A DNA stretch of 64,000 nucleotides from Aeromonas fluvialis (GTDB taxonomy: Bacteria > Pseudomonadota > Gammaproteobacteria > Enterobacterales > Aeromonadaceae). A program made the position numbers and the translations under genes. Positions within the stretch are counted from its first letter, which is position 1; each line of letters starts with the position of its first letter. Under the pieces are notes generated by a model. The model did not search any database and had not been told where the DNA came from. It worked only from the letters and a program-made list of their open reading frames with translations. Location of the stretch: positions 1-64,000 of the forward strand of contig NZ_CDBO01000008.1 in the NCBI RefSeq assembly GCF_000819885.1, in the 5' to 3' direction. Below are positions 18,178 to 27,900 of the stretch, in pieces.

Positions 18178-18492
18178 ATGAGCCAATTCGACGAGATGAA
18201 CAGACATGCGACAGCCGCCGCTTCCCTGCTCAAGGCGTTGGCTCACCCTGAACGCCTGATGGTGCTCTGTCAGCTGGTGGAGGGGGAAAAAGGCGTCGGG
18301 GAACTGCTGGCCCACAGTCAACTCGGGCAGTCGGCCTTCTCCCAGCAATTGTCGGTATTGAAGCGCCAGGGTCTTATCCGCTCTCGCAAGGTCTCCCAGC
18401 AGATCTTCTACTCGCTGGCGAGCGAGGCGGCGGTCGATGTGCTCGGGGTGCTGCAAACCCATTTTTGTCACTCAGAAAATAAGGAATCTTGA
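18178..18492 (+). CDS. ArsR-family regulator of the YgaV/BigR/SqrR type
   Basis: 104 residues with a winged helix: LAHPERLMVLCQLVEGE leads in, QSAFSQQLSVLKRQGL is the recognition helix region, and IRSRKVSQQIFYSL is the wing. The only cysteines are Cys31 and Cys97, 66 residues apart. As I recall, this is the same spacing as the persulfide-sensing pair of SqrR (Cys41/Cys107). No CxC metal site of classic ArsR proteins is present. It is therefore likely to sense sulfide-derived persulfides. It opens a long co-directional gene run; its stop overlaps the next gene's ATG. Palindromes lie directly upstream, so autoregulation is likely. Confidence 0.85.
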   Translation: MSQFDEMNRHATAAASLLKALAHPERLMVLCQLVEGEKGVGELLAHSQLGQSAFSQQLSVLKRQGLIRSRKVSQQIFYSLASEAAVDVLGVLQTHFCHSENKES

Positions 18493-18905
18493 TGATGGAA
18501 AGCCAATGGCTGCTCTCTTTGGGCGGCGGCATGCTGGCGGGGCTGTCGGCCCTGATCCTGATGTTGTTCAACGGCCGGGTCGCCGGGATCAGCGGCATTC
18601 TGGCCGGAGCCTTGCAACACCGGGCACCGTGGCGGGTGCTGTTTCTGTTGGGGCTCGGGGCTGGCGCCTGGCTGGCGCTGACTCTGGGTTGGGCCAGCAT
18701 GCCCGCCTTCACCACTTTGCCCGGGTGGCCGGTGGTGCTGCTGGCTGGTCTGCTGGTCGGGGTCGGTACCCGCCTTGGCAATGGCTGCACCAGCGGTCAC
18801 GGCATCTGCGGCATGGGTCGGCTCTCCCTGCGCTCCATCGTCGCCACCCTGACCTTTATGGCGGCGGGTTTCATCACCGTCTTCGTCACTCGTCACCTGT
18901 TGTAA
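18492..18905 (+). CDS. YeeE/YedE-family sulfur transport protein, first half
   Basis: 137 residues; the ATG at 18492 overlaps the regulator stop (TGATG), with AAGGA upstream. Four hydrophobic segments are visible. The YeeE/YedE signature GNGCTSGHGICG lies at about residues 95-106 and places two cysteines in the membrane pore. Full-length YeeE is a thiosulfate/sulfane-sulfur importer; here, as in PmpA/PmpB pairs, the function is split over two small proteins. It is followed 13 bases later by the second half. Confidence 0.85.
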   Translation: MMESQWLLSLGGGMLAGLSALILMLFNGRVAGISGILAGALQHRAPWRVLFLLGLGAGAWLALTLGWASMPAFTTLPGWPVVLLAGLLVGVGTRLGNGCTSGHGICGMGRLSLRSIVATLTFMAAGFITVFVTRHLL

Positions 18906-18918
18906 GGAGCTGATCGCC

Positions 18919-25486: not shown

Positions 25487-26701
25487 ATGCGGCGGCCCGA
25501 TGTGATCCACTTTGCCGCCGTCGCCCTGCTGCGCCAACGCTCACGGGCGCTGGTCTTGATCCTGGCGGTGAGCCTGAGCGTCACTTCCGTGCTGCTGCTC
25601 ACCGCGCTGGGGGAGGGGGCGAGACGCTATGTGGCCGACCAGTTCAGCTCCCTTGGCAAGGATCTGCTGGTGATGTTCCCGGGTCGCAAGGAGACCACCG
25701 GCGGGCTGCCGCCGGTCACCGGCAACAGCCTGCGGCAGATCACCCTCGATGACATGCACTACCTCGGCCAGCACCTGCCCAAGGTGCGGCTGGTGCCACT
25801 GGTGATGGGCTTTGCCGAGGCCAAGCAGGGGGCGCGGCTGCGCCAGACCATGCTGCTTGGCAGCAGTAACGGGCTGCGCGATACCCACGGGCTGCAACTG
25901 CTCTCCGGCCGCTGGCTGCCGGGGGAGGCCGCCGAGGATCGACCGGTCGTCCTGCTCGGGGCCGTGGTAGCCCGGGAGCTGTTTGGCCAGGCCGATCCGG
26001 TCGGCCAGTGGCTGCGTTTTGACAATCGCCGCTTTCGGGTGGTGGGGATCTTCACCAGCCAGAGCAGCAATCTGGGGATGGACATGGCTGAAGCCGCGCT
26101 GATCCCGGTGGGCAGCGCCATGCGGCTGTTCAATACCGAGGGGCTGTTTCGGCTGCTGATCCAGCCGTTGGCGGGGCAGGCTGTGTCCCCGCTGGTCAAG
26201 CGACTGGAGCAACTGATGCAGGCGCGCCACGGGGTGCTCGATGTGACCGTGGTACGCCGTGACGCCATGCTGGCCACCTTCTCCACCATTCTCTCGACCC
26301 TCACCCTGGCGGTTGCCAGCATCGGCGCCATCAGCCTGCTGGTATCCGGCATCATGATGATGAATCTGGCGCTGATCAGCACTCGCCAGCGCACCGGCGA
26401 GATCGGTCTGCTCAAGGCGCTGGGGGCCGACAGTCGCCAGATCCGCCAGCTGTTTTTATGGGAGGCGCTGCTGTTGAGCGGCAGTGGCGCGCTGTTTGGC
26501 ACGGTCTTGGGCTATGCCCTGGTCGCCCTCGCCGCGTTGGTGTGGCCCGGATTTCCGGTGGCGGTGCCTGTGCTCGCGACCCTCTGCACCCTGCCGGCGG
26601 CCCTGCTGACCGGGCTGTTTTTTAGCTGGCTACCCGCTTCCCGGGCGGCACGGCAAGATCCGGTCAGCAGCCTGCGCAGCGGACAATGGAGCGGTGGCTG
26701 A
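25487..26701 (+). CDS. MacB/FtsX-type ABC permease 1
   Basis: 404 residues; its ATG follows the ATPase stop without a gap. TM1 (ALVLILAVSLSVTSVLLLTAL) is followed by a large periplasmic MacB-PCD domain to about residue 260, then three C-terminal helices with the FtsX-type segment LISTRQRTGEIGLLKALGA between them. Four-helix mechanotransmission permeases of this type do not carry substrate through the membrane but work the periplasmic adaptor. It probably heterodimerises with the next protein. Confidence 0.93.
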   Translation: MRRPDVIHFAAVALLRQRSRALVLILAVSLSVTSVLLLTALGEGARRYVADQFSSLGKDLLVMFPGRKETTGGLPPVTGNSLRQITLDDMHYLGQHLPKVRLVPLVMGFAEAKQGARLRQTMLLGSSNGLRDTHGLQLLSGRWLPGEAAEDRPVVLLGAVVARELFGQADPVGQWLRFDNRRFRVVGIFTSQSSNLGMDMAEAALIPVGSAMRLFNTEGLFRLLIQPLAGQAVSPLVKRLEQLMQARHGVLDVTVVRRDAMLATFSTILSTLTLAVASIGAISLLVSGIMMMNLALISTRQRTGEIGLLKALGADSRQIRQLFLWEALLLSGSGALFGTVLGYALVALAALVWPGFPVAVPVLATLCTLPAALLTGLFFSWLPASRAARQDPVSSLRSGQWSGG

Positions 26702-27900
26702 TGCGCCTCGCCGATCTGCTGTTCTGGCTCTGGCGCGCCTTGCTGGCAGGGCGCAGTCGCAGCCTGCTGTCGGCGCTGGGCATCGCCATCGGGATCGCCT
26801 CGGTGACCCTGCTCACCGGCATCGGTGAGGGGCTCAGGCTCTATCTGCTCGACAGTTTCTCCCAATTTGGTACCCGCTTGATCGCCGTGACCCCGGGCAA
26901 GACCGACACCGCCGGCGGCCCGTCCGGTATCCTCTCCAGCAGCCGCCCCCTGCTGTTGGAGGATGCCGATGCCTTGGCAAGATTGCCGGGTATCGAGGCG
27001 GCGCTCCCTGTGGTGCAGGGGCAGGGAGAGGTGCGCAGCCGCGGGCTGACTCGCAGCACCGCCATTCTGGGCACCGGCCCGGCGGCGCTCTCTGGCTGGC
27101 GCCTCAGCCTGATGCAGGGGCGTTTTCTGCCCGCGGATGACAGTGCCATGCCCCGCGCCTATGCGGTGCTGGGGGCCAAGGTGGCAGCGGAGCTGTTTCC
27201 CGGCGGCGATGCCCCGGGGAGTCTGCTGCGCGCCGGAGATCGCCGCTTTCGGGTGGCCGGGGTGCTGGCCCCCAAAGGACAATTTCTCGGCTTTGATCTG
27301 GACGACATGATCTATCTGCCCGCCGCCCACGCCCAGGCGCTGTTCAACAAGGAGGGGCTGCAGGAGATAGACGTCATCTATCGCGCCGGGCAGACAGAGG
27401 CCGACATCTCGGCCCAGGTCCAGCGGGTGCTGATCGCTCGCCACGGCGCCGAGGATTTTACCCTCACCTCCCAGCAGGACATGCTGACCAGCCTTGACAA
27501 GATCCTCTCCATCATCAAGCTGGCGGTCGGCGGGCTCGGCATTATCTCGCTGCTGATCGGGGCGGTCGGCATTTTCAGCATCATGAGCATCGCCCAGCAG
27601 GAACGGATCCCGGAGGTGGGTTTGCTGATGGCGCTGGGCTGCCCACGGCGTCGCATCTTATTGCTGTTTCTGCTCGAAGCCGTGGTGCTGGCACTGCTGG
27701 GCGGGGCTATGGGATTGGCCCTGCTCGGCGGTCTCAAGCTGCTGCTCACCTTGTTGGCGGCCGGGTTGCCGCTCACCCTCCATCCTCTTTATCTGCTGCT
27801 GGCGCTCGGTTGTAGCGCCCTGGTCGGTCTGCTGGCCGGGGTCGCTCCTGCGCTGCGGGCGGTGCGGCTCGACCCGGTGGTGGCCCTGCGGGGGGATTGA
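26701..27900 (+). CDS. MacB/FtsX-type ABC permease 2
   Basis: 399 residues from the ATG at 26701, which overlaps the preceding TGA; an in-frame ATG at 26686 is possible, but GGAG at 26688 favours the inner start. It has the same plan as permease 1: TM1 with ALGIAIGIASVTLLTGI, a periplasmic domain with PGKTDTAGG, and three C-terminal helices flanking AQQERIPEVGLLMALG. It is the last gene of the nine-gene run. No hairpin with a T run was recognised directly after it. Confidence 0.93.
   Translation: MRLADLLFWLWRALLAGRSRSLLSALGIAIGIASVTLLTGIGEGLRLYLLDSFSQFGTRLIAVTPGKTDTAGGPSGILSSSRPLLLEDADALARLPGIEAALPVVQGQGEVRSRGLTRSTAILGTGPAALSGWRLSLMQGRFLPADDSAMPRAYAVLGAKVAAELFPGGDAPGSLLRAGDRRFRVAGVLAPKGQFLGFDLDDMIYLPAAHAQALFNKEGLQEIDVIYRAGQTEADISAQVQRVLIARHGAEDFTLTSQQDMLTSLDKILSIIKLAVGGLGIISLLIGAVGIFSIMSIAQQERIPEVGLLMALGCPRRRILLLFLLEAVVLALLGGAMGLALLGGLKLLLTLLAAGLPLTLHPLYLLLALGCSALVGLLAGVAPALRAVRLDPVVALRGD

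What the first reader, a model, noticed from the sequence alone, without database searches (positions are those of the whole stretch)
18178..27900. Nine-gene run joining a persulfide-type sensor, sulfur transporters and two different tripartite exporters
The genes for the ArsR-family regulator, two YeeE/YedE proteins, adaptor 1, RND pump, adaptor 2, ABC ATPase and two MacB/FtsX permeases are co-directional. Overlaps are 1-8 bases, and no gap exceeds about 45 bases. An RND pump and a MacB-like exporter in one unit with sulfur-uptake-type proteins under a YgaV/SqrR-like regulator is not a textbook arrangement. Inference: a response that exports toxic sulfur species or thiol conjugates by two energy sources, sharing a TolC-type channel encoded elsewhere.
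Basis: partly seen in the sequence, partly recalled or inferred. Interest (0 to 1): 0.72.

Follow-up and report, generated by a model that had tools for sequence, protein, structure and literature searches.

The report
Sulfur-sensor operon with two exporters
In an Aeromonas genome, a predicted sensor of reactive sulfur sits in one gene run with a sulfur transporter and two different outward pumps, and relatives show that the pumps come and go beside this sensor, so the run is probably a defence against toxic sulfur compounds whose exact cargo is still unknown.

Summary
The nine-gene run is real and the coordinates hold. A tenth gene was missed: a YgaP-type membrane protein (17904-18089, minus strand) divergent from the regulator. 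The regulator is BigR/SqrR-like with both cysteines. Two operator-like sites surround the only promoter-like site; they are conserved in the genus, and the palindrome TTAG-N6-CTAA recurs at 14 of 28 dithiol ArsR loci elsewhere. In 37 Aeromonas genomes, 22 have the RND pump and 14 the ABC exporter; as far as contigs show, every copy lies behind the same sulfur module (11 both, 11 RND only, 3 ABC only). The regulator was found in all 25 exporter genomes, against 2 of 12 without. Beyond Aeromonas the RND pump often sits with ArsR, YgaP-TM or SQR-type genes; the ABC exporter has no such partners in 20 sampled relatives, so it was probably recruited. Published work already notes SqrR-type regulators beside RND pumps and an H2S-responsive MFP-SQR-RND operon in Azospira. 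Best reading: a persulfide-derepressed detoxification operon in which an RND pump, in some species plus an ABC exporter, expels sulfur species or thiol adducts. New variant of a known kind; the cargo is unproved, and the orphan pump VexLM is probably a relative.

The parts
17904..18089 (-).
   Evidence: Pfam E 1.7e-14; found in 22 of 22 RND-bearing Aeromonas genomes; Cys49 in 91 of 91 aligned rows
18110..18123 (.). operator-like site 1, TTAG-N6-CTAA, overlapping the -35 hexamer
   Evidence: only exact match of TTAG-N6-CTAA in the window (10 of 100 shuffles also had one, so the match alone is weak); the extended motif matches without mismatch only here and at site 2 in the whole genome; conserved
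18117..18144 (+). promoter-like site, TTGCTA - 16 - TAGAAT
   Evidence: the -10 region is conserved in the genus alignment
18155..18168 (.). operator-like site 2, TCAG-N6-CTAA, just before the regulator start codon
18178..18492 (+). ArsR-family regulator, BigR/SqrR-like, Cys31 and Cys97
18492..18905 (+). YeeE/YedE-type protein (PF04143), matches the C-terminal half of the family: PmpA-like
   Evidence: Cys99 and Cys106 in 39 of 40 rows
18919..19377 (+). DUF6691 (PF20398), the other short YeeE-type half, read as PmpB-like
   Evidence: Cys102 in 55 of 55 rows
19416..20474 (+). periplasmic adaptor 1 of the RND pump
   Evidence: RND_mfp TIGR01730 above cut-off
20467..23619 (+). RND transporter, ACR_tran family, Asp419-Asp420 pair
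   Evidence: PF00873 525.5 bits; Asp pair invariant in alignment A1 of 9 sequences
23647..24786 (+). periplasmic adaptor 2, with four conserved cysteines (55, 115, 156, 221)
   Evidence: TIGR01730 above cut-off; Cys in 18-19 of 19 rows
24779..25486 (+). ABC ATPase, MacB/LolD type, separate polypeptide
25487..26701 (+). MacB/FtsX-type permease A
   Evidence: PF12704 + PF02687
26686..27900 (+). MacB/FtsX-type permease B
   Evidence: PF12704 + PF02687; MacB is the closest solved structure

Best explanation
A reactive-sulfur stress operon. Shown by sequence: a dithiol ArsR regulator of the BigR/SqrR type, conserved operator-like repeats over its own promoter, and a divergent YgaP-type membrane protein. 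Inferred from relatives with known chemistry: when cellular persulfide/polysulfide rises, Cys31 and Cys97 become bridged by sulfur, the repressor leaves the two sites, and both the divergent gene and the nine-gene run are expressed. YeeE-DUF6691 (PmpA/PmpB-like) moves small sulfur species across the inner membrane. Adaptor 1 plus the RND protein, working with an outer-membrane channel encoded elsewhere, takes sulfur species or sulfur-modified thiols/lipophiles from the membrane or periplasm and expels them using the proton gradient. In the subset of species that carry it, the second adaptor plus a split-MacB ABC exporter adds an ATP-driven route for a related or further cargo. The core (sensor + RND + YgaP-TM) is the conserved part; the ABC exporter is an accessory cassette.
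For: Regulator: the closest solved chains are the biofilm growth-associated repressor (BigR), an ArsR regulator that I recall as Rhodobacter SqrR (6o8k), HlyU, NolR and YgaV, and both cysteines align with the first two. Operator: the palindrome TTAG-N6-CTAA occurs in 25 of 26 dithiol Aeromonas loci and 14 of 28 dithiol loci elsewhere (shuffle means 0.12 and 0.18), in 0 of 17 non-dithiol ArsR loci. Genus: ArsR in 25 of 25 exporter genomes against 2 of 12 others (Fisher 2e-7, not corrected for kinship); of those two, G004's ArsR has lost the second cysteine. On an rpoBC tree of 36 genomes at least 8 changes for RND, 6 for ABC, 5 for ArsR. Wide: of 79 RND relatives (L097-L175), 31 have ArsR, 38 YgaP-TM and 22 an SQR-type or other FAD oxidoreductase within 6 kb at 80 bits or more; around a control exporter none of 20 loci did (read). 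V. metoecus and V. barjaei have ArsR-YeeE-DUF6691-MFP-RND; the order MFP-SQR-RND occurs in L112, L123, L124, L130, L164. [quoted passage not shown] Li et al. 2025 state that SqrR-type regulators appear to act also on RND pumps and PmpAB (PMC12423496, section 2.1 read).
Against: No expression, binding or transport data for this locus. 31 of the 80 RND relatives showed none of ArsR, YgaP-TM, DUF6691/YeeE, PDO or strong SQR within 6 kb; 26 if the five YgaP-TM frames that the overlap filter dropped are counted. 31 of the 80 loci have less than 6 kb on at least one side, which may hide partners. 16 of 46 ArsR proteins within 6 kb of the pump lack the cysteine pair. Deleting the whole Azospira operon did not change the H2S oxidation rate, and its authors suggest metal-sulfide export. 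The NCBIfam BigR cut-off is not reached (86.8 of 155 bits). The SqrR-type site ATTC-N8-GAAT is not in the promoter; a one-mismatch copy lies inside the coding sequence at 18186. The ABC exporter in 20 sampled relatives has no sulfur-gene neighbour apart from one weak ArsR and one very weak PDO match. Some genus copies carry a stop: permease A in G022 and G031, DUF6691 in G003 and G036, so the unit is not under strong keeping everywhere.
Confidence: 0.58

Rival explanations
1. Sulfur-cued general efflux: the regulator senses reactive sulfur, but the pumps export ordinary toxic compounds (antimicrobials, lipophilic compounds) that are met in sulfidic, anoxic or gut settings. Sulfur is the cue, not the cargo.
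For: The RND protein is an ACR_tran member whose best solved relatives are multidrug pumps; the closest solved relative of permease B is the macrolide exporter MacB. The title of PMC9774250 says that the E. coli SqrR/BigR homologue YgaV controls antibiotic tolerance (listing, passages).
Against: It scores far below the named multidrug RND subfamily cut-offs (best 491.9 against 1250). The probable Vibrio counterpart VexLM had no substrate among the compounds tested (PMC10225521, passages). SQR-type genes lie inside the pump operon in five relatives.
Confidence: 0.22
2. Metal-sulfide or metal-thiol efflux: the pump removes metals made toxic by sulfide, or metal-thiolate complexes; the ArsR protein could even respond to metal.
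For: Authors of the Azospira study propose export of metal sulfides; the HTH_metalloreg subfamily model is above its cut-off for this ArsR.
Against: The RND protein is far below the CusA/CzcA heavy-metal cut-off (256.5 against 701.45) and the solved regulators nearest to the ArsR are of the persulfide-sensor type.
Confidence: 0.1
3. Two units that only adjoin: ArsR-YeeE-DUF6691-MFP1-RND is one operon and the ABC exporter is a separately regulated cassette inserted behind it.
For: The ABC exporter has no such partners in 20 of 20 sampled relatives outside the family and is missing from 11 of 22 Aeromonas genomes with the RND gene.
Against: All 14 Aeromonas copies lie co-directional behind the sulfur module or the RND gene; in 3 genomes without RND the adaptor follows DUF6691; the junction in the window is 27 bases with no promoter- or terminator-like site.
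Confidence: 0.1

Closest known systems
Azospira suillum PS Dsui_3440-3443 (MFP - SQR - RND - unknown)
   Same: RND pump and adaptor in a sulfide-linked operon; same MFP-SQR-RND order as in relatives L112, L123, L124, L130, L164 of this pump; highly expressed under H2S oxidation and pointed out by Bar-seq (passages)
   Different: SQR instead of YeeE/DUF6691 in the run, no second exporter; its sequence was not compared here, the link rests on gene order
BigR operon of Acinetobacter (yeeE-yedE-pdo2) and the Serratia PmpAB locus
   Same: Dithiol ArsR repressor with YeeE/YedE-type transporters (PMC7315123, passages); PmpA/PmpB are short YeeE halves (PMC11582611, passages)
   Different: There a persulfide dioxygenase is part of the operon; here two exporters follow and no dioxygenase gene is in the run
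Vibrio ArsR-YeeE-DUF6691-MFP-RND loci, probably including VexLM of V. cholerae
   Same: Same five genes in the same order in V. metoecus (L097) and V. barjaei (L100), plus YgaP-TM
   Different: No ABC exporter. The identity with VexLM is inferred (small-chromosome location; the figure legend of Li et al. lists a cysteine-pair ArsR regulator VC_A0642, there called HlyU; vca0642 is listed under transcription regulation in PMC9178039, one passage; the gene numbers of vexLM are recalled) and was not tested by sequence
MacAB-TolC
   Same: Periplasmic adaptor with MacB-type ABC exporter
   Different: The ATPase is a separate protein and there are two unlike permeases; the adaptor carries four conserved cysteines

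Membership tests
BigR/SqrR/YgaV persulfide-sensing ArsR repressors | ArsR winged-helix family with best similarity to BigR/SqrR | tested here: met
   PF01022 above cut-off; best PDB matches BigR 7.4e-22 and 6o8k (recalled as SqrR) 3.7e-19
BigR/SqrR/YgaV persulfide-sensing ArsR repressors | conserved cysteine pair | tested here: met
   Cys31 and Cys97 align with those of BigR and 6o8k; both present in 26 of 27 fetched Aeromonas rows, the exception being exporter-free G004; 58 and 57 of 75 over all ArsR rows
BigR/SqrR/YgaV persulfide-sensing ArsR repressors | NCBIfam BigR equivalog cut-off | tested here: not met
   86.8 bits against 155: a relative, not BigR itself
BigR/SqrR/YgaV persulfide-sensing ArsR repressors | SqrR site ATTC-N8-GAAT in the promoter (as given in PMC9774250) | tested here: not met
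   only a one-mismatch copy inside the coding sequence; TTAG-N6-CTAA type sites instead
BigR/SqrR/YgaV persulfide-sensing ArsR repressors | persulfide-driven tetrasulfide and loss of DNA binding | not testable with these tools
   needs purified protein
PmpAB-type split YeeE transporters | two short (about 130 aa) proteins matching the two halves of YeeE, each with a conserved Cys | tested here: inconclusive
   137 and 152 aa with conserved Cys; the first matches the C-terminal half of PF04143, the second only PF20398 (DUF6691), whose place in the N-terminal half was not tested; definition from PMC11582611 passages
Tripartite RND exporters | ACR_tran transporter plus RND_mfp adaptor gene pair, Asp pair | tested here: met
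Named multidrug or heavy-metal RND subfamilies | NCBIfam cut-offs | tested here: not met
   none of the 17 listed models reaches its cut-off, e.g. 491.9 of 1250 (RND_permease_2), 256.5 of 701.45 (CusA/CzcA)
MacAB macrolide exporter | ATPase fused to the permease (as in the 648-aa MacB model) | tested here: not met
   ATPase 236 aa and two permeases of 404 aa are separate genes
VexLM | sequence identity with the V. cholerae proteins | not tested
   no named V. cholerae sequence was compared; inference from gene order and replicon

The most novel reading that the evidence does not exclude
The RND subfamily carried here is a dedicated exporter of sulfane-sulfur species (polysulfide, organic persulfides or sulfur-modified lipophiles), the natural job of an orphan pump group that includes Vibrio VexLM, and in part of Aeromonas it has been doubled by an ATP-driven split-MacB exporter under the same persulfide switch.
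Probability: 0.33. Interest if true: 0.8.

Novelty: new variant of a known kind. Interest (0 to 1): 0.55.

Why it matters
The native cargo of many RND pumps is unknown. A pump group that is repeatedly tied to a persulfide-type switch, SQR-type oxidoreductases and YgaP-type proteins gives a concrete, testable cargo class, links sulfide physiology to efflux, and would explain why VexLM-like pumps showed no antimicrobial substrate. The genus-level cassette swapping (none, RND, ABC, both) behind one sensor is a natural experiment for asking what each exporter adds.

Tried and rejected
Metal-resistance operon: rejected as first choice because the RND protein misses the CusA/CzcA cut-off and the regulator is nearest to persulfide-type sensors. 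Simple PmpAB sulfur-uptake operon: DUF6691 is in 36 of 37 Aeromonas genomes whether or not ArsR was found, while ArsR follows the exporters, so the regulator looks to be kept for the exporters. Classical MacAB: fusion feature not met. A wider regulon in the own genome: sites of the extended motif other than the two here have 1-2 mismatches and are no more frequent than the reversed-pattern control (9 against 7 in all); the best of them lies in a gene region that looks like surface-polysaccharide synthesis. Adaptor 1 CxxxxC motif as a sulfur site: in 20 of 37 Aeromonadaceae rows but only 2 of 94 wider rows (the window itself and, I take it, L096), so a lineage trait. Recurrent partners of the ABC exporter: an all-against-all comparison of frames in its loci (L206-L226) gave, as recurrent clusters, permease/ATPase/adaptor families and what I read as antisense frames; it was looked at by eye only. 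Structure prediction was not run: the sequences allowed for adaptor 2 would have given too shallow an alignment. Papers: the nine searches showed no report of an ABC exporter in the same operon nor of a sulfur role for VexLM in listings or in the passages I opened; most subscription papers are outside that library.

Limits of the counts. ArsR and YgaP-TM absence in exporter-free Aeromonas was judged by tblastn in the 11 fetched loci around DUF6691; G005 has no DUF6691 match, was not fetched, and is counted as absent. Absence in draft genomes may also be an assembly gap. The rpoBC tree omits G030 (no rpoB match) and is from one locus. G013 and G031 have the run split over contigs. In L057 the YeeE match is short (288 of about 411 bases). 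L096 is the same locus as L042 (G033, equal contig length). The 20 control loci are 20 of the 69 other matching genomes, mostly the best scoring; all four ABC-system genes were recognised in 14 of them. The zero of the control was entered by me at a limit of 80 bits (best marker there: ArsR 69 bits, PDO 20 bits).
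Full report
What is there. The window lies in an Aeromonas genome (named relatives of the RND protein: A. veronii 96%, A. caviae 93%). Genes 18178-27900 read as stated: ArsR, YeeE, DUF6691, adaptor, RND, adaptor, ABC ATPase, two MacB/FtsX permeases, all on the plus strand with gaps of at most 38 bases. A divergent 61-aa YgaP-like membrane protein (PF11127) lies at 17904-18089 and by its distribution belongs to the unit. In 17000-29000 one promoter-like site was found, before the regulator, and no terminator-like site lies in a junction.

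Regulator and operator. Among solved chains the ArsR protein is nearest to BigR and to an ArsR regulator that I recall as Rhodobacter SqrR, and its only two cysteines align with theirs. It stays below NCBI's BigR cut-off, so it is a relative in that group. The promoter holds two repeats, TTAGTTATTGCTAATTTA at 18110-18127 and TCAGCAATTGCTAATTTA at 18155-18172, one over the -35 and one just before the start codon; 0.03 matches of the pattern with up to two mismatches are expected in the window. In the alignment of 28 Aeromonas promoters most positions of both repeats are the same in at least 90% of rows, with departures in L048 and L057 among others. The core palindrome TTAG-N6-CTAA is found in 25 of 26 dithiol Aeromonas loci, in 14 of 28 dithiol ArsR loci from other groups (mean 0.18 in shuffles), and in 0 of 17 loci whose ArsR lacks the cysteine pair; other spacings gave no exact copy in the dithiol groups. 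That link between cysteine pair and palindrome is the best evidence that this is the operator; 14 of the 28 do not have it. In the own genome the extended motif has no other match without mismatch, which suggests local control.

Genus-wide test. Among 37 Aeromonas genomes (own + 36) the RND gene is in 22 and ABC permease A in 14. DUF6691 is in 36. By position, the 22 RND genes follow ArsR-YeeE-DUF6691-adaptor (in G013 over two contigs), and the 14 ABC copies follow either the RND gene (11) or DUF6691 (3: G003, G023, G031, the last split over two contigs). ArsR was found in 25 of 25 exporter genomes and in 2 of 12 others; of those two, G004's ArsR has a serine in place of the second cysteine. 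YgaP-TM was found in 22 of 22 RND genomes, 1 of 3 ABC-only and 0 of 11 fetched exporter-free loci. On an rpoBC tree of 36 genomes the minimum numbers of changes are 8 (RND), 6 (ABC), 5 (ArsR), 7 (YgaP-TM), and neighbours differ in state (G018 RND, G022 both, G023 ABC). So the exporters turn over as cassettes, yet beside the sensor. The Fisher values ignore kinship; the repeated changes on the tree are the better argument. Some copies carry a stop (permease A in G022 and G031, DUF6691 in G003 and G036).

Wider test. The RND protein has a match at E 1e-220 or better in 43 of 199 sampled genomes of the order, own included. In 80 named relatives (the best 80 of 577), within 6 kb: ArsR 32, YgaP-TM 39, strong SQR-type oxidoreductase 20, DUF6691 5, PDO 4, none of these 31; five of those 31 do have a YgaP-TM frame that my overlap filter dropped. 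Around a control exporter (ABC permease A in 20 class members) the same models gave nothing at 80 bits or more, a weak ArsR (69 bits) and a very weak PDO (20 bits). V. metoecus and V. barjaei carry ArsR-YeeE-DUF6691-MFP-RND; other loci have an SQR-type gene between adaptor and RND (L112, L123, L124, L130, L164), or CoA-disulfide-reductase/rhodanese proteins beside the unit. The oxidoreductases called SQR-type here are related to, but far below the cut-off of, NCBI's type III SQR model (74 and 111 of 525 bits for the two scanned), so the name is tentative. Paracoccus pantotrophus plasmid pPAN2 has MBL-fold hydrolase, YgaP-like, membrane protein, DUF6691, sulfur transferase, ArsR, cytochrome c, DUF2892, adaptor, RND.

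The ABC exporter. Permease A has matches at 35-46% identity in 69 of the 369 other class genomes sampled. In 20 fetched loci no DUF6691, YeeE or RND gene of this group lies near; the four genes adaptor-ATPase-permease-permease were all recognised in 14. It is thus a more general exporter that Aeromonas has placed behind the sulfur sensor. Its adaptor has four cysteines conserved in 18-19 of 19 rows, unusual for such adaptors as far as I recall; disulfides are a guess.

Mechanism and limits. I read this as a persulfide-derepressed stress operon with an RND exporter for sulfur species or sulfur-modified compounds and, in some species, a second ABC exporter. Sensor type, operator-like sites and co-location are shown by sequence; sensing chemistry is inferred from relatives; cargo and the shared outer-membrane channel are inference (outer-membrane factor genes exist elsewhere in the genome). 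Rival cargoes are general toxicants or metal complexes.

Relation to print. Li et al. 2025 (PMC12423496, section 2.1 read) already state that SqrR-type regulators appear to act also on RND pumps, TauE and PmpAB. The Azospira paper (PMC5358917, passages) reports an operon of unknown, pump, SQR and MFP genes, highly expressed and pointed out by Bar-seq under H2S oxidation, with no effect of its deletion on the oxidation rate. A review of V. cholerae RND systems (PMC10225521, passages) says that vexLM is on the small chromosome and had no substrate among compounds tested; PMC3364225 passages agree for VexM. The suggestion that VexLM is this pump is an inference from gene order, replicon (pump on a 1.75 Mb contig of a 5.4 Mb genome, G157, of a family that I take to be Vibrionaceae; on a 599 kb replicon in Vibrio sp. 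HDW18, there without ArsR-YeeE; a cysteine-pair regulator VC_A0642, called HlyU there) and recalled gene numbers. The nine paper searches showed no report of the double-exporter arrangement. Verdict: real, coherent, a new variant of a known kind.

Noticed in passing
window 17742-17903 compared with L037, L042, L044, L055, L059: Five fetched Aeromonas loci carry an SQR-type FAD oxidoreductase gene behind the divergent YgaP-TM gene; the window genome has only 162 bases between the LacI-type gene and YgaP-TM.
   Followed up: partly
window 28063-28631: Frame-broken remains of a gene that is a 564-aa open frame in L083 (decarboxylase-like by recall); the lipoate-ligase-like gene (by recall) that follows DUF6691 in exporter-free relatives L080 and L083 is not between the operon and these remains.
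   Followed up: partly
window 23647-24786 (adaptor 2) and relatives in L206-L225: Four nearly invariant cysteines (55, 115, 156, 221) in the adaptor of the split-MacB exporter.
   Followed up: partly
window 20376-20393 (adaptor 1, Cys321 and Cys326): A CxxxxC motif near the C-terminus of adaptor 1, in 20 of 37 Aeromonadaceae rows and in 2 of 94 wider rows, one of them the window itself.
   Followed up: partly
L084 (G004): An exporter-free Aeromonas keeps the ArsR gene but its second cysteine is serine.
   Followed up: no
L097 10001-13159: The pump gene of this Vibrio metoecus strain is interrupted (one stop inside), read here only in pieces.
   Followed up: no
L161, L170: In two Marinobacter loci this pump gene is followed by a second adaptor-RND pair, and further on by a MacB-type permease-like frame.
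   Followed up: no
L037: The Aeromonas caviae record in the plasmid collection is 4.9 Mb and looks like a chromosome, not a plasmid.
   Followed up: no
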